From Candidatus Margulisiibacteriota bacterium (lineage in GTDB: Bacteria > Margulisbacteria > Riflemargulisbacteria > GWF2-35-9): 46,003 nt of DNA. Positions within the stretch are counted from its first letter, which is position 1; the number at the start of each line of letters is the position of its first letter. The notes beneath the pieces are model-generated. The model was not told the origin of the DNA. It saw only the letters and a program-made list of their open reading frames with translations, and did not search any database. Positions 18,885-46,003 of the stretch are shown one piece after another. The position numbers and the translations under genes are program-made. The stretch covers positions 1 to 46,003 of the forward strand of contig JAQURL010000013.1 of the NCBI GenBank assembly GCA_028715625.1, in the 5' to 3' direction.

Positions 18885-20412
<1,528 letters not shown>

Positions 20413-20454
20413 TAAGGAGAACCATTTTTGTATCTCACGTACAAAATAGGCCGA

Positions 20455-20488
20455 AAGGGTTTGCTATTCAACTTTGAGTTTCCTATGC
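20455..20488 (+). other. 3' arm of the 16S pre-rRNA processing stem
   Basis: Pairs with 18819-18852. The match is nearly continuous over 34 bases, with mismatches only in the central AT-rich part. Confidence 0.85.
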
Positions 20489-20514
20489 TATAGGCATTGC
20501 AAATTGTTGATTAA

Positions 20515-20592
20515 GGGCTTATAGCTCAGGTGGTTTAGAGCGCACGCCTGATAAGCGTGAGGTCCCTGGTTCAAGTCCAGGTAGGCCCACCA
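20515..20592 (+). tRNA. tRNA-Ile (GAT)
   Basis: A cloverleaf is visible: acceptor GGGCTTA (20515-20521) pairs with TAGGCCC (20582-20588), and the anticodon stem CACGC/GCGTG encloses CTGATAA with anticodon GAT at 20550-20552. The T arm has GGTTCAAGTCC and the CCA end is encoded. It lies in the 16S-23S spacer, the standard position for tRNA-Ile. Confidence 0.97.
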
Positions 20593-20771
20593 TACTACGC
20601 TCTCGTCACTCGAGCTTCGTTTGGCAAGCCATAGAAATTATGGTTTTCCGGCGCGGTTAAGTGTAGCATAACAGATTAAACTGTTATAACTACCCTGAGT
20701 ATAAGAGTGAACGGGCTGCCAGGATTTAGATAAGGCAAAGGGAGTATGCTCTCCTAAGCTTTGGCGTAGGA
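20593..20771 (+). other. Spacer between tRNA-Ile and tRNA-Ala
   Basis: The 179 bases hold no gene but two clean hairpins: CCATA/TATGG near 20625-20645 and the perfect seven-base ATAACAG/CTGTTAT (20668-20687) with the six-base loop ATTAAA. They are probably processing structures of the pre-rRNA. Confidence 0.6.
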
Positions 20772-20847
20772 GGGGGTGTAGCTCAGTTGGTAGAGCGACT
20801 GCCTTGCACGCAGTAGGTCATCGGTTCGATTCCGTTCACCTCCACCA
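20772..20847 (+). tRNA. tRNA-Ala (TGC)
   Basis: Acceptor GGGGGTG (20772-20778) pairs with CACCTCC (20837-20843) through one G-U pair. The anticodon stem ACTGC/GCAGT encloses CTTGCAC with anticodon TGC at 20805-20807. The T loop GGTTCGATTCC and encoded CCA are present. It is the second spacer tRNA of the operon. Confidence 0.97.
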
Positions 20848-20985
20848 AGTATCGTTAATCAACGATATGCGGATTTAAATAATAACTGCCACTATGGCGA
20901 AATTTAGTTTGTTATTACTTTAAAAATCATTCTCTGCAAAGAGATTTGATAGGCTTCTCGATTACGAGATAGCAAATTGATAATT

Positions 20986-21058
20986 TAGTGTTTCTTCAAA
21001 TTAAGGGTAAAAAAATATACCAATTTATCTCAAGCCTTTATTGTGAATCGAGCGAATA
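20986..21058 (+). other. 5' arm of the 23S pre-rRNA processing stem
   Basis: Blocks of this segment are complementary to blocks after 23S (24041-24107). TTCAAATTAA, AAAATATACC, CCTTTATTGT and GAATAGG have counterparts in the same order on the opposite strand. They would form a long interrupted duplex that brings the two 23S ends together for RNase III. Confidence 0.8.
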
Positions 21059-24040
<2,982 letters not shown>

Positions 24041-24043
<3 letters not shown>

Positions 24044-24107
24044 ATTCTTTCTCGGTTTACAATAAAGGATTGTGCAGGTATATTTTATTAATTTGAAAAA
24101 CACGAAA
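24041..24107 (+). other. 3' arm of the 23S pre-rRNA processing stem
   Basis: Pairs in blocks with the segment just before 23S (20986-21060): CCTATTC, ACAATAAAGG, GGTATATTTT and TTAATTTGAA are complementary to the 5' arm in reverse order. Confidence 0.8.
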
Positions 24108-24130
24108 TTATTAAGCAAGTATGTAAAAGC

Positions 24131-24250
24131 TTGCTGGTGACTATAGCGAAGGTGAAACACCTGTTCCCATCCCGAACACAGAAGTTAAGCCCTTCAGCGC
24201 TGATGGTACTGCATGGGAAACTTTGTGGGAGAGTAAGTCGTTGCCAGCAA
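24131..24250 (+). rRNA. rrf: 5S ribosomal RNA
   Basis: The 5' end TTGCTGGTGAC pairs with the 3' end GTTGCCAGCAA (helix I). The internal block CACCTGTTCCCATCCCGAACACAGAAGTTAAG, recognised by its central CCCGAACAC, is the loop B/C signature. About 120 bases, the normal size. It closes the rRNA operon. Helix I can be extended by GC on each side (24129-24252), and a T-run follows immediately. Confidence 0.96.
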
Positions 24251-37210: not shown

Positions 37211-38851
37211 CTAAGAATTCAGTATCTTTTTTGCACACTCATCCATTACATCGGTAATAAAGGGAATTTTTGTTTCTTTTTCAGTTTCTCTGTTCGCGGA
37301 AAAAATATCCTCACGTGCAATCTGGTTTAGTGTAAATTTTCTTGCCCCGGCCATTAGTTGCTGTAGTCCGGCGGAGAGTTTATCGCAGAGAGTCCAGATA
37401 GCTATTGCGCCGTATGGAATATGTTTCATTTCACTTTTGCCGACCTTTTTCTCGACATCATAGTATCCGGCAAAAATTTCTTCAGCGCTTGAACCAAGTT
37501 CCGCAATATTTTTAGGCAGGCTGTCCCAATTGCCGTTGACTTTAGCTTTGTTTTTGGGATTGAGTACACCTTCCACATTAGAACCCAGATATCCCGGAAT
37601 CATTACTGACCGGCCCATACAAATAAGTTTGGTATAGGGAGCACCCAGTGCCAGAGCCTTGAAGATTTGGTCTTCTCTTGCCAGTCCTCCTGCAAAAGCC
37701 ATATCTACAACCTTTTGGCCTTTGGCTGCCAGAATGGCTGCATATTCATATGCCTTGGAATGTAATAGGATGGAGGGGACACCCCAGCTTTCCATCATGT
37801 TCCATGGGCTCATGCCTGTCCCGCCACCTGAACCGTCAATGGTTAGCAGGTCAAGCTTTGCTTCAGAAGCAAATTTTATAGACATGGCTAATGCTTCCAT
37901 ACCATAAGAACCTGTTTTTAATGAAATTCTATCGAAACCTATTTTTCTCAAATAAGCGACTGAATCCATAAAGTTTTCTCGTACAGCATCCCAGGAAGTT
38001 AAATCTGTGTAGCCAAGACGGCTGTGACGGGCAAAAGATTTGATAGACCTATGTTTGAATGCTTCCTGCACTTCTTTTTTAGTGGGATCAGGGTCAACTA
38101 CATAGCCGCGTTCCTTTAAGAAAATAGCATAATCCAGACTTGTAACCTGAATTTCTCCGCCGATATCCTTGGCTCCCTGTCCCCATTTCAACTCGATAAT
38201 TGCTTTGTTGCCATATTTATTAACAACATATTCGGCAACGCCGTTACGAGTATCTTCCACGTTCATCTGCACAATAATAGCACCATAACCGTCATAATAT
38301 TTCAGAAAAGTATCGATTCTGCGGTCTAGTTCAGGAGCTTTTTTGATTTTGCCATTTTTAATTTCAGATTTTTTATCAACACCGACTACATTTTCTCCGA
38401 CTACAATCGGAATACCCACTAACGCTGCGCCTACAGCGAAAGATTCCCAATACTTGGCCGCTACAAAAGTAGAGCCAAGAGCGCCGGTCATGACTGGGAT
38501 TTTGCATTTTGTTTTAATTTTCGTACCGAACGAAGTTTCCAGGCTGACATTAGGGAAAATACAGTCGTCAGCCGATGTGGAAAGACCTTTGGGCAGACCG
38601 TGAACACCATAGTTATAACCCTGAATGCGTAATGAGTTATAAGCGACCCCTATATGTGTAGTATTTCCACTGCCGGCGGTTACTGACCCGAATTCTCTGG
38701 GATAAAGCATCTTTCTGCCTTTTATACTGGACAACCAGGTTTCACATTTTCCAGAACAATCTGCCATACACAGCGTACAAAGTCCGGATTCGGTCGGATT
38801 TCCTCTATTAACGCTTCCGATAACATCATTACTTTTTGACCATTGCAACAT
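37211..38851 (-). CDS. FMN-binding glutamate synthase-like protein without the usual Fe-S motif
   Basis: The 546-residue protein has the glutamate synthase FMN barrel, with KWGQGAKDIGGEI, DGSGGGTGMSPW near residues 337-348, GGLAREDQIFKALALGA, and an opening cysteine group CTLCMADCSGKC (residues 25-36). It lacks the cysteine cluster CxxxxxCxxxxCP that binds the 3Fe-4S centre of true GltB, and has no glutaminase or GXGXG domain. It is therefore a paralogue of the GltB2 domain with unknown reaction. AGGAGGGTG precedes the ATG. It lies 96 bases after the GAF-ANTAR regulator, in the same direction, so it is likely regulated by it. Confidence 0.8.
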   Translation of the reverse strand: MLQWSKSNDVIGSVNRGNPTESGLCTLCMADCSGKCETWLSSIKGRKMLYPREFGSVTAGSGNTTHIGVAYNSLRIQGYNYGVHGLPKGLSTSADDCIFPNVSLETSFGTKIKTKCKIPVMTGALGSTFVAAKYWESFAVGAALVGIPIVVGENVVGVDKKSEIKNGKIKKAPELDRRIDTFLKYYDGYGAIIVQMNVEDTRNGVAEYVVNKYGNKAIIELKWGQGAKDIGGEIQVTSLDYAIFLKERGYVVDPDPTKKEVQEAFKHRSIKSFARHSRLGYTDLTSWDAVRENFMDSVAYLRKIGFDRISLKTGSYGMEALAMSIKFASEAKLDLLTIDGSGGGTGMSPWNMMESWGVPSILLHSKAYEYAAILAAKGQKVVDMAFAGGLAREDQIFKALALGAPYTKLICMGRSVMIPGYLGSNVEGVLNPKNKAKVNGNWDSLPKNIAELGSSAEEIFAGYYDVEKKVGKSEMKHIPYGAIAIWTLCDKLSAGLQQLMAGARKFTLNQIAREDIFSANRETEKETKIPFITDVMDECAKKILNS

Positions 38852-38947: not shown

Positions 38948-39661
38948 TTATTTATTTATTTTATACGACTTAATCTCTTCAGCAGTGATAATGAGATTAG
39001 CCACATCCTGCATGGATATTCTGTGGTCCATGGCATAGTTTTTAATTTTTAAATAGGCGTCTTCTTCCGAGATGTTTGTATCTTTTTGGATTATTCCTTT
39101 GGCGCGTTCTATTTTTTTGCGTGTTTCCAGCTCTTCCTGAATTAATTTGCTTTTTAAAATAAGATTCGTGTTTTCAATGGCCATTGCTGCCTGGTTGGCA
39201 ATAGTGGTAAGAATATGTATCTCATTTTTGGTAAAGCTATGCACTTCTGAGGTGTAGCAGTTTATCACACCGATAACCCTGCCTTTAACAGCCATGGGCA
39301 CTGAAAGTAGAGATTTTAAGCCTTCTTTTGTGGCGATATCTCGATATTTGTAATCTTTTTCGCTGGTTACATCTTTAATTACCATGAGTTTGTTAGTTTG
39401 AGCTACTTTTCCAGCAATACCTTCACCGAGTTTCAGGGGCGGCTTTTTAATATATTCGTCACTTATGCTTTGGGTTGCCTTTATTTTAAGCACATGACTT
39501 TCTTCATCATAAAGCATCAATGAACAAATATTGGATTTCATAAGTTCGGCAGTGACAACAACAATCAGCTTAAGAATATCGTCCAGATAACCTTCAGATG
39601 TTATTGCCTGGCTTATTTTTGATAAAGCTTTTAGTAAATCATTATTGGATGCTCGTTGCAT
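38948..39661 (-). CDS. GAF-ANTAR RNA-binding antitermination regulator
   Basis: The 237-residue protein has an N-terminal GAF sensor domain at about residues 17-165 (LKLIVVVTAELMKSNICSLMLYDEE, GEGIAGKVAQTN, LLSVPMAVKGRVIGVINCYT). The C-terminal ANTAR domain at about 178-232 contains LETRKKIERAKGIIQKDTNISEEDAY in part. ANTAR proteins bind paired RNA hairpins and prevent early termination; many control nitrogen genes (NasR, AmiR families). The GAF domain probably senses a small ligand, or light or redox state. It sits between two glutamate synthase-type units, 214 bases from the divergent gene at 39876. TATAAT lies 11 bases before its ATG. Confidence 0.92.
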   Translation of the reverse strand: MQRASNNDLLKALSKISQAITSEGYLDDILKLIVVVTAELMKSNICSLMLYDEESHVLKIKATQSISDEYIKKPPLKLGEGIAGKVAQTNKLMVIKDVTSEKDYKYRDIATKEGLKSLLSVPMAVKGRVIGVINCYTSEVHSFTKNEIHILTTIANQAAMAIENTNLILKSKLIQEELETRKKIERAKGIIQKDTNISEEDAYLKIKNYAMDHRISMQDVANLIITAEEIKSYKINK

Positions 39662-39731
39662 TTTCGTATTAAATTATACCACAAATTGTTCGGATTAAAA
39701 TCATTGAATGCCAGATATTATAAGGCTTTCA

Positions 39732-39777
39732 GCTTGTTTTTGCCTGTAAACGACAAGCGGATTTTTTAGATTTACAG
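39732..39777 (+). promoter_or_regulatory. Competing hairpins upstream of the glutamate synthase operon
   Basis: GCTTGT (39732-39737) pairs with ACAAGC (39753-39758), followed by GGATTTTTT, which looks like a weak terminator. CTGTAAA (39744-39750) pairs with TTTACAG (39771-39777). The two stems interlock and cannot both form as simple hairpins, so they could be alternative structures if this stretch is transcribed. The likely promoter is further downstream, so this may be only DNA-level symmetry. Confidence 0.35.
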
Positions 39778-39837
39778 TAAAAAATTTATAATCAAATTGA
39801 AAATACAATGAAATAAGTTTTTATGAAAGCTATGCTA

Positions 39838-39866
39838 TTGACCTTTGATGTAATTTATAGCAAAAT
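39838..39866 (+). promoter_or_regulatory. Candidate promoter of the split glutamate synthase operon
   Basis: TTGACC (39838-39843), 17 bases and CAAAAT (39861-39866) match consensus at nine of twelve positions, nine bases before the ATG at 39876. A second TATAAT lies at 39787-39792 without a good -35. No SD precedes the gene. Confidence 0.5.
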
Positions 39867-39875
39867 TACTGAACG

Positions 39876-40988
39876 ATGTGTAGAATTGGTTGTATTAAAA
39901 GTATTGAACCGTTTCATCCTTCCAAAGCATTGTATTTAATGCTTCCCCAGCAGGAGGGACATGACAATTCGGGATTTGCTATAGTAATGAAAGACTTATA
40001 TGGCATTTTTGAGCCGTATAAGGAACTTCCCCTGCTTTCCTTTTCCTGTACCAATAAAGGCAAAGAAATCATCAGTAACTTCATGCTAAAAAAGGGATTC
40101 AGTAAAAAAATATTCACCTGGGAGCCGGATTTCGTTGAAAAAGAGCACTATGATTTTGCCAAAATGGACTTTTACGGTTTTGATGTTTTTAACTATCCGG
40201 AATCTATTTTAAAAGGAAGTGTTAAAGAAAAAGAAGAAATTCTTCTCAACACCAGGCTGGAACTTAGGAAGTTACTGGAAAAAACCGCGGACGGTTATGT
40301 GTTTTCTTTCTGGCCCGATACATTAACCATTAAGGAAATAGGCAACCCTAATGATATAGGAGAGTATTTTAATTTATGGAAAGAAAACAAGGATATTTTG
40401 GCAAAGAATATTATGATTCAATATCGGCAGAATACCAATTATGAAATTGTACGTTATGCCGCGCATCCCTTTTTTCTTCAGGGCTACACGCTTTGTGCCA
40501 ATGGAGAAAATACATTTTACGTAAAAAACAAGGAATATCAGCAAAGCCTGCATAAAGGTTATATAGGTTTTGAATCGGATTCCCAATGTTTTTTGTATAC
40601 CCTGCATTATCTGCATCATGAACTAAAATGGCCTTTCGCTTACTACAAGCACGTGATAACTCCTCTGCCTTTTGAAGAAATAGAAGAACATCCCGACAAG
40701 CAAATACTATACAAGATCAGAGAGTCGTTGGCCCATCTGGAAATTAACGGGCCCAATACCGTAATAGGTCTGTTGCCGGATAATACAATGTTTACGGTTT
40801 GTGATTCCAAGAAGTTAAGACCTGTTGTCGTAGGCGCTGACAATAAAATAGTTGCTATTACTTCTGAAGTGAACGGGCTGAATGTGATTTTGCCCGACCG
40901 TGATAAAACAAAGGATGTTTACCCTAACGAGAGGGAAACGGTTGTTGTGACAAACGAATTAAGGATTGAACGATGGAAGCAAATATAA
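39876..40988 (+). CDS. Glutamate synthase glutaminase-domain subunit (GltB1-like)
   Basis: The 370-residue protein begins MCRIGC, with Cys2 in position to become the N-terminal nucleophile of a class II (Ntn) glutamine amidotransferase. DNSGFAIVMKDL, VRYAAHPFFLQGYTLCANGENTFY and GYIGFESDSQCFLYTLHYL match the glutaminase domain of archaeal-type split glutamate synthase. It should release ammonia from glutamine and pass it to the FMN subunit encoded next. In classical GltB these domains are fused; here they are separate genes. The gene overlaps the FMN subunit by 16 bases. No SD is visible and the promoter is close, so it is probably leaderless. Confidence 0.88.
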   Translation: MCRIGCIKSIEPFHPSKALYLMLPQQEGHDNSGFAIVMKDLYGIFEPYKELPLLSFSCTNKGKEIISNFMLKKGFSKKIFTWEPDFVEKEHYDFAKMDFYGFDVFNYPESILKGSVKEKEEILLNTRLELRKLLEKTADGYVFSFWPDTLTIKEIGNPNDIGEYFNLWKENKDILAKNIMIQYRQNTNYEIVRYAAHPFFLQGYTLCANGENTFYVKNKEYQQSLHKGYIGFESDSQCFLYTLHYLHHELKWPFAYYKHVITPLPFEEIEEHPDKQILYKIRESLAHLEINGPNTVIGLLPDNTMFTVCDSKKLRPVVVGADNKIVAITSEVNGLNVILPDRDKTKDVYPNERETVVVTNELRIERWKQI

Positions 40989-42610
40989 AAATTAATGATA
41001 TAACCGAGAATGACCTTAACTGGAAAGTAGAATATGACAATACTCGTTGCACCAGATGTGGAAGATGTATTTCCACCTGTACTTTTCATGCCCTGGAAAT
41101 GAAAGTTGAACGCAGGGCTTATACTGTTTCGGATACAAAAGTACCTGCTCCCAAAAGAGTATTCAGCACAATACCTGTAGTCAAGCAAATAGCTACAATT
41201 AAACAAAAGTGTGTTGGTTGCGGTATGTGTGAAAAAGTTTGCCCGAATCAGGCAATTAAACCGGTTAGAAATATTGATACAAGGGAAAATCTTTTAAATC
41301 ATGAACTGGGCAGCCCTATTAAAAGAGGCGGAAGGACCAACTTAAGCATTGAGCGTACGCTCGACCGGATTAAAGTCGGCCGTATATCCCAGATGACAGA
41401 CCCCTCGCTGGATGCGCAGCGCCATACATTTGATATGCTTAGTCCTTTCGGAAGGGTGCTTGGCCCCGAAGAACTTCCTTTTAAAATAGAAAACGATGAA
41501 CTAAAAATAAAAGGTTCAATACCTCCCGTACACTGGATATACCCAATAATATTCGCGGATATGTCTATAGGCGCGCTTTCCACCAGAGCCTGGGAAGCAA
41601 TTTGTATAGCAACTGCTATATTAAATGAAAAATATAATATGCCGGTGCGGATGTGTTCTGGTGAGGGCGGCATGCCGATAAAGCTGATGCAGTCCAAATA
41701 TTTAAAATATATGATATTGCAGATTGCCTCGGGGCACTTTGGCTGGAACAGAATAATAAAAGCCATGCCGCAGATGACAGAGGATCCGGCTGGTATTCTT
41801 ATCAAGATCGGACAGGGCGCAAAACCCGGTGACGGAGGCCTTCTCATGGCTGCCAAAGTTGCTCGTCATATTCAGGAAATCCGTGGTGTGCCAAGGTCTG
41901 ACCTGTTATCTCCCCCAAATCATCAGGGTTTGTATAGTATTGAAGAATCAGTGCAGAAAATGTTTTTGTCATTTAATGCCGCCTTTCAATTCAGAGTCCC
42001 GGTTGCTATCAAAGTAGCTGCTTCTTCTTCATCGGTATCCGTATATAACAATTTGCTGCGTGATCCGTACCACATAGTCGGAGGATTTTTTCTGGATGGT
42101 ATTCAGGGTGGAACAGGAGCCGCGCATGAGGTTTCTCTGGATCATACCGGACACCCCGTAGTTTCAAAAGTAAGAGACGCATACATAGCCGCGGTCAATC
42201 AGGGTAAACAGGGCCGAATTCCTTTATGGGGCGGTGGTGGTGTAGGATTGACAGGAACCATGGCCGCAGACGCTTTCAAGATGATTTGCCTTGGTGCAAA
42301 CGGAGTATTTACAGGTAAAATTTTGATTCAATTGCTCGGTTGTATTGGTAATGAAAACGGTCGCTGTAATCAATGCAACACAGGTTTATGCCCTACAGGA
42401 GTTACTACTCAGGATTATCGGTTGGTACAAAGACTGGATATAGATAAAGCAGCGGAAACGTTAGTGAATTATATGTTGTCGGTAGATACAGAATTTAGGA
42501 AATTAATGGCACCAATAGGAAACAGTTCATTGCCCGTGGGACGTAGTGATGCCTTGGTCTCTGTGGATAAGGGAATTGCGGATAAACTGCAAATTCCATA
42601 TGCCTGTTAA
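40973..42610 (+). CDS. Glutamate synthase FMN subunit with N-terminal ferredoxin domain (GltB2-like)
   Basis: The 545-residue protein has two 4Fe-4S motifs at its N-terminus (C26, C29, C32, C36 and C80, C83, C86, C90). The glutamate synthase FMN barrel follows, with CSGEGGMPIKL, KIGQGAKPGDGGLL, GGTGAAHEVSLDH near 379 and GGGGVGLTG near 415. The cysteine cluster CIGNENGRCNQCNTGLCPTG near 460 would bind the extra Fe-S centre. It performs the 2-oxoglutarate amination step with ammonia from the glutaminase subunit. The ferredoxin part should bring in electrons. It overlaps its upstream partner by 16 bases. This is the archaeal/anaerobe-type split enzyme. Confidence 0.93.
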   Translation: MEANIKINDITENDLNWKVEYDNTRCTRCGRCISTCTFHALEMKVERRAYTVSDTKVPAPKRVFSTIPVVKQIATIKQKCVGCGMCEKVCPNQAIKPVRNIDTRENLLNHELGSPIKRGGRTNLSIERTLDRIKVGRISQMTDPSLDAQRHTFDMLSPFGRVLGPEELPFKIENDELKIKGSIPPVHWIYPIIFADMSIGALSTRAWEAICIATAILNEKYNMPVRMCSGEGGMPIKLMQSKYLKYMILQIASGHFGWNRIIKAMPQMTEDPAGILIKIGQGAKPGDGGLLMAAKVARHIQEIRGVPRSDLLSPPNHQGLYSIEESVQKMFLSFNAAFQFRVPVAIKVAASSSSVSVYNNLLRDPYHIVGGFFLDGIQGGTGAAHEVSLDHTGHPVVSKVRDAYIAAVNQGKQGRIPLWGGGGVGLTGTMAADAFKMICLGANGVFTGKILIQLLGCIGNENGRCNQCNTGLCPTGVTTQDYRLVQRLDIDKAAETLVNYMLSVDTEFRKLMAPIGNSSLPVGRSDALVSVDKGIADKLQIPYAC

Positions 42611-42622
42611 GAAGGAATAAAG

Positions 42623-44932
42623 ATGGTAAAAGTTATACATTCAATAAAAAAACATGACAGAATGTCCACTCAGGACCTTTTGCAACAGATAAACCAGGCG
42701 ATTGCTGCCGGAGAAACAGACTTTGAGATATATGCCTGCGGTCAGCATGATATTGGCGGTCCCCTGTGGAACAAGGACGGGAAAACATTAAAATTTCTTT
42801 TACATGATCCGGGACAGCGGGCGGGCTCTATGTGTATGGAAAATACAGAAATCATTATCGAGGGACCAGCCCCTGCGGATGTAGGATGGCTTAATGCCGG
42901 CGGAATCATAACAATAAAAGGTGATAGCGGCGACACAACCGCTCATTGTGCTGCAGCTGGAAAAATATATGCCAGCGGGCGAGTGGGAACGCGTTCCGGC
43001 TCGCTTATGAAGCATGATCCCAGATACGAGCCCCCTGAGTTTTGGGTCCTTAAAAACACAGGAAGCTTCCCCTTTGAGTTTATGGGAGGAGGTATAGGTG
43101 TAGTTTGCGGTTATGACTGCCAGGAATTTGATTCTGTTTTAGGTGACAGAGCCTGTGTTGGTATGGTCGGCGGCCTGGTATATGTAAGAGGCAATATTTC
43201 CGGAGTATCCGGCGAGGTTCGCCTTTATCCTCTGGAAGAACAGGATAAGGAGTTTTTAAGCAAAGGACTGAAACCTTTTTTAAAAGCCATTGGCAAAGAG
43301 AAACTGGAAAAAGAGCTTTCCAATTGGAAAGACTGGCAGAAAATTGTTCCCAAGAATTATAAGGAACGTCATTACTACGAAATTATTAGTCCGCAGCAGT
43401 TTAGGCTGAATGATTGGGTAAAGGATGGTATTTTTTCTGACGTTTATCCTGACGAAGGGAAAGTTTTAGGGCTGGTTAATACTGGCGACAATCGTTTGCG
43501 TTATCCCCAGTGGGAAAATATCAAACATTGCGCCCCCTGTGAATACAAGTGCCCCATTTCTGTGCCAACCCAGCAGCGCTATAATTTGATCCGCGAAGGA
43601 AAAATCAGGGAAGCGCTGGAACTTATTTACCAATATAACCCCTTCCCTCGTACTGTTTGTGGGGAAGTTTGCCCTAACCTTTGTATGGAAAGTTGTACCC
43701 GCGGCGACGTAGACCAGCCTATTGATGTAAAAGGTCTGGGTTCTGTATCTGAAACCACTGTAAAGTTAAATGCAGCGGAAAAGCCGCAGAAAGTAGCTAT
43801 TGTCGGAGGAGGAGTCGGTGGATTGTCTGCAGCCTGGCATCTTCGGCACATGGGATATCAGGTTACCGTTTATGAAAAGGGTTCACAAATCGGTGGCAAG
43901 CTTTTCCATGCGGTTTCCAGGGATCGTTTATCTACCGAATCTCTGAGCAGAGATCTGGATAATTTTAAAAAAATCGGTATTGATTATAAATTAAATACAG
44001 CTGTGGACGAAAAATTATACAATGAGTTAAAGAAAAAGTTTGACGCTGTTATATTAGCTACTGGTGCTTATGAGCCGAAAATTCCCAATTGGCCGGGCAA
44101 GGAAAAATTGCTGATTTCTCTTGATTTTCTGGCAAAAGTAAATAAAGGCGAAAAAGTAAACCTTGGTAAAAAGGTAGTGGTTATCGGAGCCGGGAATACA
44201 GGCATGGATGTGGTTTATGGCGCTTACACCTGCGGAGCCAAAGAAGTAACCGCAATTGACGTACAAAAGCCCAGCGCTTTCCCCAAAGAGTTGGAACATG
44301 CCCGGAACCTGGGTGCTAAAATTTTATGGCCGGTATTTACCAAGGAAATTACTGATAAAGGCGTAGTTTTAACTGACGGCAGGCTTCTTGAAGCGGACTC
44401 TGTAATTCTGGCAATCGGCGAAGTGCCGGTACTGGATTATATAAACGACGAAGTGGAAAATATCCGGGGGTATCTTAAGGTAGAAAAAGATTATCAGCTG
44501 ATGGATAATGTTTATTCCATAGGAGATATGACCAGGCTAGGGCTTCTGGCTGATTCTATAGGTCATGGCCGCGAAGTTGCCTTGGTATTAGATGCCAGGT
44601 TCAACAATCGTACTTACGAACCTAAAGTAAAGGATCTGATAAATAAAAACCGTATTGTGACTGCTTATTTTGATACGGTCCATGAAGAATGTATTGATGG
44701 CATCTGTAAGGATGTTGATCGTTGTATAAGTTGCGGTACCTGCCGCGATTGCCGGCTTTGCAAGGAATCCTGTCCTGAACTTGCCATCTATCGGGTTCAG
44801 CATGATGAAAAGAATTACGAATATATCGCCGACCCGGAAAAATGTATCGGCTGCGGAATTTGCGCGGCTGTTTGTCCTTGCGGTATTTGGCAGATGTATG
44901 TAAACAAACCTTCGTTTCCCGGCGAAGAGTAG
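42623..44932 (+). CDS. Fused glutamate synthase GXGXG domain, GltD-like oxidoreductase and ferredoxin
   Basis: The 769-residue protein joins three parts. Residues about 35-215 form the GltB3-type beta-helix (NAGGIITIKGDSG, GGGIGVVCGYDC, GMVGGLVYVRGNISG). From about 303 the GltD/NADPH oxidoreductase follows: Fe-S cysteines CAPCEYKCPISVP and VCGEVCPNLCMESC, FAD motif GGGVGGLSAAW near 394, and the second nucleotide-binding motif GAGNTGMD near 520. The C-terminal 80 residues carry ferredoxin motifs (CISCGTCRDCRLCKESCP and CIGCGICAAVCP). Electrons from NAD(P)H or ferredoxin should reach the FMN subunit. The fusion of GltB3 with GltD is unusual. It follows the FMN subunit after 12 bases. Confidence 0.92.
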   Translation: MVKVIHSIKKHDRMSTQDLLQQINQAIAAGETDFEIYACGQHDIGGPLWNKDGKTLKFLLHDPGQRAGSMCMENTEIIIEGPAPADVGWLNAGGIITIKGDSGDTTAHCAAAGKIYASGRVGTRSGSLMKHDPRYEPPEFWVLKNTGSFPFEFMGGGIGVVCGYDCQEFDSVLGDRACVGMVGGLVYVRGNISGVSGEVRLYPLEEQDKEFLSKGLKPFLKAIGKEKLEKELSNWKDWQKIVPKNYKERHYYEIISPQQFRLNDWVKDGIFSDVYPDEGKVLGLVNTGDNRLRYPQWENIKHCAPCEYKCPISVPTQQRYNLIREGKIREALELIYQYNPFPRTVCGEVCPNLCMESCTRGDVDQPIDVKGLGSVSETTVKLNAAEKPQKVAIVGGGVGGLSAAWHLRHMGYQVTVYEKGSQIGGKLFHAVSRDRLSTESLSRDLDNFKKIGIDYKLNTAVDEKLYNELKKKFDAVILATGAYEPKIPNWPGKEKLLISLDFLAKVNKGEKVNLGKKVVVIGAGNTGMDVVYGAYTCGAKEVTAIDVQKPSAFPKELEHARNLGAKILWPVFTKEITDKGVVLTDGRLLEADSVILAIGEVPVLDYINDEVENIRGYLKVEKDYQLMDNVYSIGDMTRLGLLADSIGHGREVALVLDARFNNRTYEPKVKDLINKNRIVTAYFDTVHEECIDGICKDVDRCISCGTCRDCRLCKESCPELAIYRVQHDEKNYEYIADPEKCIGCGICAAVCPCGIWQMYVNKPSFPGEE

Positions 44933-45071: not shown

Positions 45072-46003
45072 ATGGCATATGATTTTCCTGAAGAGGTTAG
45101 AAACATCGTATTTTCAGGTGAAGCTGGGCAAGGGCTGAATTTTGTAGCCGATATACTTATCAAAGCTTTCAAAAAGAATGGTTATCATGTGCATGGCTCT
45201 CAGGAGTTTATGTCGAGGGTGCGAGGTGGCAATAATTCTCTGACCGTGAGAATAGCTGAATTTCCTGTTAAGGCAAACCTGAGCAGGATTGATATCTTCA
45301 TACCATTTAACGCTAATGCCAGTGAAAGATTCCTGGAACGCATCACACCTGAAACACTGGTACTTACCGATGATACATTTATAGATAAATTACTGCAAGA
45401 AAAAAATGTAAACGAAATAAAAATTCCTTTACAGAAAATGGCAACAGAAGCAGGAGGAATACTGTTCATAAATAGTGTACTGATTGGTGTTTTAGCTGGA
45501 GTTTTCAGCTTAAATCTTGAGAATATCATAGATGATGTTTTAAAAAAATTTGCCGATAAAGACGAAAGCGTTCGCGAAAAAAACAGAAAAGCCTTAAAAA
45601 ACGGCTATAATACCGGCAAAGAACTGCTTGCCGGGAAGCTGTCCGGGTTACCTTTAAAGGTTACCGAGAGCATAAAAAAAGATTTTTTGATTAATGGTTC
45701 AAGAGCTGTTGGAATTGGCGCGCTGCTTGGTGGGTGCAATTTTATGTCCGCATATCCTATGTCTCCCTCAACTGATGTCTTTACATTTTTGGCTGAAAGA
45801 GCCGGTCAACTAGGCCTGGTCGTAGAGCAAGCAGAAGACGAGATTGCGGCAATAAATATGGCAATCGGAGCCTGGTACGCAGGTGCCAGAGCAATGGTAA
45901 ATACTGCTGGCGGTGGATTTGCTCTGATGACTGAGGGCCTAAGCTTGGCCGGAGCAATTGAGTCACCTTTGGTTATTCATTTGGCACAGCGCCCGGCACC
46001 TGC
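45072..46003 (+). CDS. 2-oxoacid:acceptor oxidoreductase, fused gamma-alpha subunit (partial, runs off the window)
   Basis: The frame is open from the ATG at 45072 to the end of the window, giving the first 310 residues. Residues about 10-185 are the gamma domain (VFSGEAGQGLNFVADIL, GSQEFMSRVRGGNNSLTVRI). From about 208 the alpha (pyrimidine/core) domain begins, with NGSRAVGIGALLGGCNFMSAYPMSPSTDVF, then EQAEDEIAAINMAIGAWYAGARAMVNTAGGGF, cited here only by position 254-286. It matches KorA-type subunits that oxidise 2-oxoglutarate, pyruvate or other 2-oxo acids with ferredoxin. The beta subunit is presumably beyond the edge. Its neighbourhood suggests 2-oxoglutarate. AAAAAGGAG precedes the ATG. 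Confidence 0.93.
   Translation, partial: MAYDFPEEVRNIVFSGEAGQGLNFVADILIKAFKKNGYHVHGSQEFMSRVRGGNNSLTVRIAEFPVKANLSRIDIFIPFNANASERFLERITPETLVLTDDTFIDKLLQEKNVNEIKIPLQKMATEAGGILFINSVLIGVLAGVFSLNLENIIDDVLKKFADKDESVREKNRKALKNGYNTGKELLAGKLSGLPLKVTESIKKDFLINGSRAVGIGALLGGCNFMSAYPMSPSTDVFTFLAERAGQLGLVVEQAEDEIAAINMAIGAWYAGARAMVNTAGGGFALMTEGLSLAGAIESPLVIHLAQRPAP

What the first reader, a model, noticed from the sequence alone, without database searches (positions are those of the whole stretch)
42623..44932. Three-part fusion GltB3-GltD-ferredoxin in one polypeptide
The GXGXG domain of the large subunit is fused to the small-subunit-type NAD(P)H oxidoreductase, with two more 4Fe-4S motifs at the C-terminus. 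Normally GXGXG is part of GltB or a separate protein and GltD is separate. The fusion would fix the stoichiometry and may allow both NAD(P)H and ferredoxin as donors, perhaps electron confurcation.
Basis: partly seen in the sequence, partly recalled or inferred. Interest (0 to 1): 0.55.

Follow-up and report, generated by a model that had tools for sequence, protein, structure and literature searches.

The report
Fused electron-input subunit of glutamate synthase
The gene is real and makes the electron-supplying half of a three-gene glutamate synthase, the enzyme that puts ammonia nitrogen into amino acids; the fusion is common in anaerobic bacteria rather than freakish, but its iron-sulphur wiring differs from the textbook enzyme in a testable way.

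Summary
ORF 42623-44932 (769 aa) is one open frame with a GXGXG beta-helix, an N-terminal Fe-S domain, a FAD/NAD(P) reductase and a C-terminal 4Fe-4S pair. It is no assembly error: relatives occur in the same phylum, in 77 of 198 genomes of a second phylum and 25 of 50 of a third. Wherever the contig continues (16 of 20 stretches) it follows a glutaminase and an FMN-synthase gene, as here. It is the genome's only GXGXG protein; the genome has one glutamine synthetase and no detected glutamate dehydrogenase, so this is most likely its GOGAT. It is better called a two-part fusion: GXGXG joined to a PRK12771/DsrL-type reductase, whose ferredoxin tail is native to that family. The NADP 'YRR' motif is replaced by an invariant Asp, so NADH is the predicted donor; the tail probably exchanges electrons with ferredoxin. 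New detail: two GltD cluster cysteines are missing, while two cysteines (C162, C178) appear in GXGXG in 54 of 54 fused proteins and in none of 8 separate GltB3 or 30 conventional GltB proteins read at both sites. A [4Fe-4S] cluster bridging the two domains would explain the fusion. Confurcation is unsupported but not excluded.

The parts
39876..40988 (+). GltB1-like class II glutaminase subunit, 370 aa
   Evidence: Cys2 (nucleophile position) invariant in 17 of 17 aligned relatives, GHD.SG motif; no Pfam or NCBIfam hit; same position upstream in 16 of 16 uncut loci
40973..42610 (+). GltB2 FMN-synthase subunit with N-terminal 2x[4Fe-4S] domain, 545 aa
   Evidence: PF01645 200.9 bits; 8 N-terminal Cys plus C457, C465, C468, C473 and the C-terminal residue C545 invariant in 18 of 18; overlaps the GltB1 gene by 16 bases
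42623..44932 (+). GXGXG / NADH-type FAD reductase / ferredoxin fusion, 769 aa
42665..43357 (+). GXGXG beta-helix domain (residues 15-245)
   Evidence: VIA alignment to 1ofd 1245-1498, Z 24.1
43106..43108 (+). Cys162 codon, proposed cluster ligand in the GXGXG domain
   Evidence: Cys in 54 of 54 fused proteins; L or N in 8 of 8 separate GltB3
43154..43156 (+). Cys178 codon, proposed cluster ligand in the GXGXG domain
   Evidence: Cys in 54 of 54 fused proteins; A, S or G in 8 of 8 separate GltB3
43511..43744 (+). Fer4_20-like N-terminal Fe-S helical domain (about residues 297-374) with C306, C310, C346, C350, C354, C358
   Evidence: six Cys invariant in 54 of 54, equivalents of NfnB Cys39/Cys42/Glu117 absent
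43781..44617 (+). FAD- and NAD(H)-binding domains (about residues 387-665); R435 and D546 invariant
44711..44893 (+). C-terminal ferredoxin-like dicluster domain (about residues 697-757), 10 invariant Cys plus C753 in 53 of 54

Best explanation
The three-gene operon 39876-44932 encodes a split glutamate synthase (GOGAT). GltB1 releases ammonia from glutamine, GltB2 reduces 2-iminoglutarate at FMN, and the 769-aa fusion is the electron-input subunit. NADH reduces the FAD (inferred from the lost YRR motif); electrons pass singly through two [4Fe-4S] clusters in the N-terminal Fe-S domain to the Fe-S cluster and FMN of GltB2 (inferred by homology with GltBD). I propose that the outer of these clusters is shared: C306 and C358 of the reductase plus C162 and C178 of the GXGXG helix, which would make permanent contact of the two parts, and so their fusion, useful; C346 would replace the usual Glu/Lys ligand of the inner cluster (inferred; separate probability about 0.5). 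The C-terminal dicluster, inherited from the PRK12771-type reductase, is a low-potential port that exchanges electrons with ferredoxin, so the enzyme can be fed from NADH or ferredoxin and may equilibrate the two, without flavin-based bifurcation.
For: Domains and fold. Operon kept in 16 of 16 uncut loci out of 20 fetched. Within the phylum GXGXG occurs once per genome, in a conventional GltB or in this fusion, never both (46 of 74 genomes with a match). Own genome: one GXGXG, Glu_synthase matches only in this window, one glutamine synthetase match, no ELFV glutamate dehydrogenase (the same search rang in 14 of 14 control genomes). YRR replaced by D546-(V/I)-Q, D546 in 54 of 54; in DsrL, the YRR protein used NADP(H) and those without it preferred or required NAD(H) (PMC7596348, abstract and passages). 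Cys pattern. Ferredoxin exchange precedent: purified GltAB of C. [quoted passage not shown] Unfused PRK12771 relatives L118 and L119 lie next to nifJ.
Against: I found no activity measured for this family. GltB1 reaches no Pfam or NCBIfam model, so its identity rests on motif, position and conservation. Asp546 suggests but does not prove NADH; I recall that some bacterial NADPH-GltD also lack a strict YRR (not tested). Only 8 of 45 genomes with a non-fused GXGXG match had loci to check. C162 and C178 could instead be structural.
Confidence: 0.72

Rival explanations
1. Electron-bifurcating or confurcating glutamate synthase: the FAD splits the two NADH electrons between GltB2/FMN (high potential) and ferredoxin via the C-terminal dicluster (low potential), or runs in reverse as confurcation.
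For: The reductase fold is closest to bifurcating complexes by structure (9bov, 9n5v, 5jfc) and the position of the Nfn N5-arginine R201 is R435 in 54 of 54. A ferredoxin-like exit is present. By recalled midpoint potentials bifurcation would be feasible; confurcation would not be needed.
Against: The same Arg in StnC (R239) sits about 6 A from N5 and that FAD is described as the non-bifurcating flavin (PMC10482914, section 9). Unfused PRK12771 proteins and the own-genome paralogue also have this Arg. The Glu ligand of Nfn's proximal cluster is an invariant Gly here (G373). No NfnA-like partner among the six neighbouring proteins scanned.
Confidence: 0.07
2. Ferredoxin-dependent GOGAT in vivo: reduced ferredoxin is the main donor through the C-terminal dicluster or GltB2's own N-terminal dicluster, and the FAD/NAD domain mainly returns surplus electrons to NAD+.
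For: Two separate ferredoxin-like domains, in GltB2 (8 invariant Cys) and in the fusion tail (10 invariant Cys); PRK12771 relatives pair with nifJ; a 2-oxoacid:ferredoxin oxidoreductase gene follows at 45072, though it has no match in the neighbour loci.
Against: The NAD and FAD sites are strictly conserved across phyla, which fits a main rather than a minor role; in C. acetobutylicum the GltAB complex with such activity was mainly NADH/NAD+ dependent and its inactivation did not change the product profile (PMC9365771, passages).
Confidence: 0.14
3. Not a GOGAT but a related amidotransferase-like complex, for example N-methylglutamate synthase (MgsABC), which also uses split GltB1, GltB3 and GltB2-like proteins.
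For: NMGS subunits are annotated as GltB1, GltB3 and GltB2 (PMC6237917, passage); GltB1 here matches no curated model.
Against: NMGS as listed there has no reductase subunit; here the GXGXG protein is fused to one, and in the phylum the fusion and a conventional GltB exclude each other. No other GOGAT and no GDH found in the genome.
Confidence: 0.04
4. Frameshift or assembly error joining two genes.
For: The window lies in a 127-contig draft.
Against: 53 relatives from other assemblies carry the same frame; positions between the domains (W238, P295, W297, N299) are invariant in the 44-member alignment.
Confidence: 0.01

Closest known systems
Split (archaeal-type) glutamate synthase: separate GltB1, GltB2 and GltB3
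   Same: Glutaminase, FMN-synthase and GXGXG parts on different chains; 40 of 45 non-fused matches to the GXGXG part lie in frames of 248-306 aa
   Different: Here GXGXG is fused to the reductase and carries C162/C178; GltB2 is only about 30% identical to the GltB2-like neighbours of separate GltB3 genes
Eukaryotic NADH-GOGAT (single chain)
   Same: Alpha and beta parts joined and NADH as donor (PMC8097209, section 10 part 1); the GXGXG-to-GltD junction is the same by domain order (recalled)
   Different: Glutaminase and FMN domains are on separate chains here; extra ferredoxin domains on GltB2 and at the C-terminus
PRK12771 / DsrL-type NAD(P)H reductase with C-terminal ferredoxin
   Same: Fer4_20, FAD/NAD domain and Cys-rich tail in the same order (190 bits to L118; PRK12771 288.5 bits; DsrL layout from PMC7596348 passages)
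   Different: Below the family cut-off of 516 bits; GXGXG added; Glu ligand replaced by Gly, extra C346
Nfn / Stn electron-bifurcating transhydrogenases
   Same: GltD-like fold (Z 37.7-42.0), R435 at the N5-Arg position
   Different: No YRR, no Glu or Lys ligand, no NfnA-like partner seen in the neighbourhood scanned
C. acetobutylicum GltAB
   Same: NADH-GOGAT able to exchange electrons with ferredoxin both ways (PMC9365771, passages)
   Different: Two-subunit enzyme; its sequence was not compared here
Ignicoccus GltS (Igni408)
   Same: Another rearranged GOGAT, with GXGXG fused to ferredoxin (PMC2614490, passages)
   Different: There the order is GXGXG, ferredoxin, FMN domain, without a reductase

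Membership tests
Glutamate synthase (GOGAT) complex | FMN synthase domain (PF01645) | tested here: met
   200.9 bits in the 40973 product
Glutamate synthase (GOGAT) complex | GXGXG beta-helix | tested here: met
   38 bits over cut-off 32.5; Z 24.1 to 1ofd
Glutamate synthase (GOGAT) complex | Class II glutaminase with N-terminal Cys | tested here: inconclusive
   Cys2 in 17 of 17 but no Pfam or NCBIfam hit
Glutamate synthase (GOGAT) complex | [3Fe-4S] motif C-x5-C-x4-C beside FMN (as in the control GltB L120; name of motif recalled) | tested here: not met
   C457-x7-C465-x2-C468-x4-C473 instead, 18 of 18; a four-Cys site, cluster type unknown; so 'works like GOGAT' rather than a textbook GltB
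Glutamate synthase (GOGAT) complex | Glutamine:2-oxoglutarate aminotransfer activity | not testable with these tools
   needs an enzyme assay
GltD (NADPH-GOGAT small subunit) | C-x2-C-x4-C-x3-C Fe-S motif | tested here: not met
   only the last two Cys (C306, C310) are present; the L120 GltD has all four
GltD (NADPH-GOGAT small subunit) | YRR motif for the NADP phosphate | tested here: not met
   D546-V547-Q548 at that place
PRK12771 (NF009410) | curated cut-off 516 bits | tested here: not met
   288.5 bits, residues 298-760; matched by 44 of 44 members, with the lowest best E-value of the families listed
Nfn-type bifurcating reductase | Arg at the FAD N5 position | tested here: met
   R435 aligned with P. 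furiosus R201 and StnC R239, 54 of 54; not diagnostic, see StnC
Nfn-type bifurcating reductase | Glu ligand of the proximal cluster | tested here: not met
   G373, 54 of 54
Nfn-type bifurcating reductase | NfnA-type second flavin subunit in the complex | tested here: inconclusive
   none among the six neighbouring proteins scanned; a partner encoded elsewhere was not sought
Eukaryotic-type NADH-GOGAT | all domains on one chain | tested here: not met
   three genes

The most novel reading that the evidence does not exclude
An electron-bifurcating glutamate synthase: NADH oxidation at the PRK12771-type FAD sends one electron through a GXGXG-bridged [4Fe-4S] cluster to FMN and 2-iminoglutarate and the other through the C-terminal dicluster to ferredoxin, so that ammonia assimilation in these anaerobes yields reduced ferredoxin. 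The bridging cluster alone (C162, C178, C306, C358) is much likelier, about 0.5.
Probability: 0.07. Interest if true: 0.75.

Novelty: new variant of a known kind. Interest (0 to 1): 0.3.

Why it matters
It shows that a large share of some bacterial phyla probably assimilate ammonia with a GOGAT that is wired differently from the textbook GltBD enzyme: another reductase family, probably NADH, a ferredoxin port, and probably all-cysteine clusters with one shared between two domains. No NCBIfam model listed for it covers the full fusion, so annotation of these genes is likely vague. The cysteine swap gives a concrete reason for the fusion that mutagenesis or a structure can test. If ferredoxin exchange or bifurcation were shown, nitrogen assimilation would have to be counted in the redox budget of such cells.

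Tried and rejected
Assembly error: rejected. A structured leader that an ANTAR protein might read upstream of 39876: no Rfam match there and fold z-score -0.81; dropped. A plasmid-borne annotated copy of the fusion: 0 of 215 matching plasmid records covered 80% of the query. Measuring Cys-Cys distances in the model: not possible, no coordinates in the box. Literature: seven searches bearing on this GOGAT fusion listed no paper that I could see on this GXGXG-reductase fusion; one search found 0 papers with the phrase 'iron-sulfur cluster-binding subunit'; one search was a search on the phylum. Desulfovibrio DVU1821-1823, which I recall as a GOGAT operon, is listed as a target of a nitrogen-metabolism regulator (PMC4641369, passage), but its sequence was not tested. 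The GltD part fills most of the structure list, so other matches for GXGXG and the tail may be hidden; of the rows shown only 1ofd and 1ofe cover GXGXG.

Rows dropped before counts: L029 (same record as L006); contig-cut fragments L017-L021 from the 54-sequence count, and those matches for which no locus was returned (102 matching genomes, 40 listed with loci). Alignment A1 holds 44 of the 54 (left out: L016, L054, L059, L069, L071, L072, L074, L075, L078, L084); the tree holds 34 of 54. L117 has ambiguous bases at the C162 position, so 29 of 30 conventional-type GltB proteins of the phylum are read there (L or I) and 30 of 30 at the C178 position (A or G); with the Persicobacter GltB, 30 proteins are read at both sites.

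Full report
WHAT IS THERE. The ORF at 42623-44932 (+) is 769 aa with no stop. It holds a GXGXG domain, a Fer4_20 Fe-S domain, a FAD/NAD(P) reductase and a C-terminal 4Fe-4S pair. AlphaFold2 on 44 sequences gave mean pLDDT 83 and pTM 0.60. The model aligns 15-245 with the beta-helix of Synechocystis glutamate synthase (1ofd, Z 24.1, rmsd 2.1, 214 residues) and 302-703 with the GltD-like part of NfnABC (9bov, Z 42.0, rmsd 2.1, 386 residues). Upstream lie a 370-aa protein starting MCRIG (Cys2 invariant in 17 of 17) and a 545-aa protein with 8 N-terminal Fe-S cysteines and an FMN-synthase domain. The domain order GltB1-GltB2-GltB3-GltD of single-chain GOGAT (order recalled) is thus kept along the operon, cut into three genes.

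NOT AN ARTEFACT, AND NOT RARE. Fifteen of 74 genomes of the phylum match at E <= 1e-60, some as contig-cut pieces. The only named relative is a Marinamargulisbacteria MAG, 69% identical over residues 1-768. In a spread of 383 genomes, 22 match, 7 of them outside the phylum and nearly full length. In the phylum of G333, 77 of 198 genomes match at E <= 1e-100, in that of G184, 25 of 50. All 44 aligned members carry the same domains. Of 20 fetched stretches, 16 show GltB1 and GltB2 directly upstream in the same order and the other 4 are cut by a contig end. A tree of 34 sequences has two deep clades, and its seven groups need 6 changes, the least possible; the own class is not recovered as one clade.

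IT IS PROBABLY THE CELL'S GOGAT. In the phylum, 46 of 74 genomes have a GXGXG match, one each. Thirty match the family strongly (25 of them in frames of 1450-1545 aa, so conventional GltB; 5 in shorter frames), 14 are fusion-type, and 2 are something else (G003, G024); none has two. The window's genome (97% complete) has this single GXGXG, Glu_synthase matches only at this locus and at its neighbour 37211-38851, one glutamine synthetase match, in a 711-aa frame, and no glutamate dehydrogenase at E <= 0.001, while the same search rang in 14 of 14 control genomes.

WHICH REDUCTASE. The best curated family is PRK12771, an NAD(P)-binding protein whose own layout includes the Cys-rich tail (288.5 bits, below the 516 cut-off; GltD models 119-132 bits). 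Directly compared, residues 286-769 score 190 and 183 bits to two unfused PRK12771 proteins over nearly their whole length and 95 bits to a true GltD. Those two PRK12771 genes sit next to nifJ, and DsrL has the same layout (PMC7596348, passages). No NCBIfam family listed covers the whole.

DONOR. NfnB binds the NADP phosphate with Y310-R311-R312; DsrL-2, which has YRR, was active with NADP(H) and not NAD(H), while the two DsrL-1 enzymes tested, which lack it, strongly preferred NAD(H) or were inactive with NADP(H) (PMC7596348, abstract and passages). Here the aligned residues are D546-V547-Q548; D546 is invariant in 54 of 54, V or I at 547, Q548 in 52 of 54. I therefore predict NADH. In the own-genome paralogue on contig 34 (StnC/Nfn-like) YRR is kept.

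CLUSTERS. In NfnB the distal cluster uses Cys39, Cys42, Cys47, Cys100 and the proximal one Cys51, Cys90, Cys96, Glu117 (PMC7596348, passages). By alignment, C306=Cys47, C310=Cys51, C350=Cys90, C354=Cys96, C358=Cys100; the residues at the places of Cys39 and Cys42 (298 and 301 by spacing) show no Cys among the commonest letters of 54 sequences, and Glu117 (Lys170 in StnC) is an invariant Gly, G373. C306 and C358 would be pointless without their cluster, yet are invariant. Three further invariant cysteines appear: C346, and C162 and C178 inside GXGXG (54 of 54). Eight separate GltB3 proteins have L or N and A, S or G there (8 of 8); conventional-type GltB proteins of the phylum have L or I (29 of 30 readable) and A or G (30 of 30). 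A further hit, L145 (G170), has both Cys and runs to a contig end, so its fusion state is open. The economical reading is two all-cysteine clusters from eight cysteines, the distal one shared between GXGXG and the reductase. This is inference from conservation; no distance was measured, because the box held no coordinates. The 54 sequences are related and are not 54 independent events.

MECHANISM. Shown: domains, operon, conservation. Inferred: NADH to FAD to two clusters to GltB2's four-Cys site (C457, C465, C468, C473, 18 of 18) to FMN, as in GltBD (PMC8097209, section 10 part 1); ammonia from GltB1. The tail and GltB2's own dicluster are candidate ferredoxin ports. Precedent: purified C. 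[quoted passage not shown] Confurcation: R435 aligns with the Nfn N5-arginine R201 and with StnC R239, but in StnC that flavin is described as non-bifurcating (PMC10482914, section 9), unfused PRK12771 and the paralogue have it too, and Nfn's Glu ligand is missing. From recalled potentials, 2-oxoglutarate amination by NADH alone runs downhill, so confurcation would serve no purpose; bifurcation to ferredoxin would be possible.

VERDICT. Observation confirmed; interpretation partly supported; a frequent variant of split GOGAT, for which I found no curated family name, with an unusual cluster arrangement. Papers: I read passages or sections as stated; the searches for this fusion listed no description of it that I could see, in a library that lacks most subscription journals.

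Noticed in passing
window 37211-38851 (-): Second Glu_synthase-family protein (546 aa, PF01645 60 bits) next to the operon; an 83.7% identical copy lies beside the same operon in L030 and a 50.5% one in L042 (another phylum). Function unknown.
   Followed up: partly
window 38948-39661 (-): GAF-ANTAR regulator between the two GOGAT-type genes, also beside the operon in L030 (61.9%); ANTAR proteins act on RNA (recalled), but no significant structure was found in the leader 39700-39875.
   Followed up: partly
window 45072-46003 (+): 2-oxoacid:ferredoxin oxidoreductase with gamma and alpha parts fused, cut by the window end; no match in the neighbour loci that were compared.
   Followed up: partly
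L122 (G003, own phylum, 55% complete MAG): Odd GOGAT: a 1076-aa frame with the glutamate synthase central domain and a Pyr_redox_2 part and, by eye, a [2Fe-2S] ferredoxin-like tail, followed by a 701-aa FMN-synthase + GXGXG frame. Another way of wiring GOGAT.
   Followed up: partly
L121 (G024): 408-aa GXGXG-type protein behind a GltB2-like frame, unlike both the fusion and the conventional GltB.
   Followed up: no
window 42605-42607, GltB2 C-terminus: The last residue of GltB2 is Cys545, invariant in 18 of 18 relatives; its role is unknown.
   Followed up: no
L002/L123 (own genome, contig 34): StnC/Nfn-like paralogue with YRR, so the genome also has a reductase of this kind that looks NADPH-linked.
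   Followed up: partly
L016/L038 (G037): Copy of the fusion with a repetitive insert (six TTVGEQ units) between the reductase and the ferredoxin tail, which suggests a flexible tether.
   Followed up: no
window 18887-24249 (+): Complete rRNA operon with two tRNAs in the spacer.
   Followed up: no
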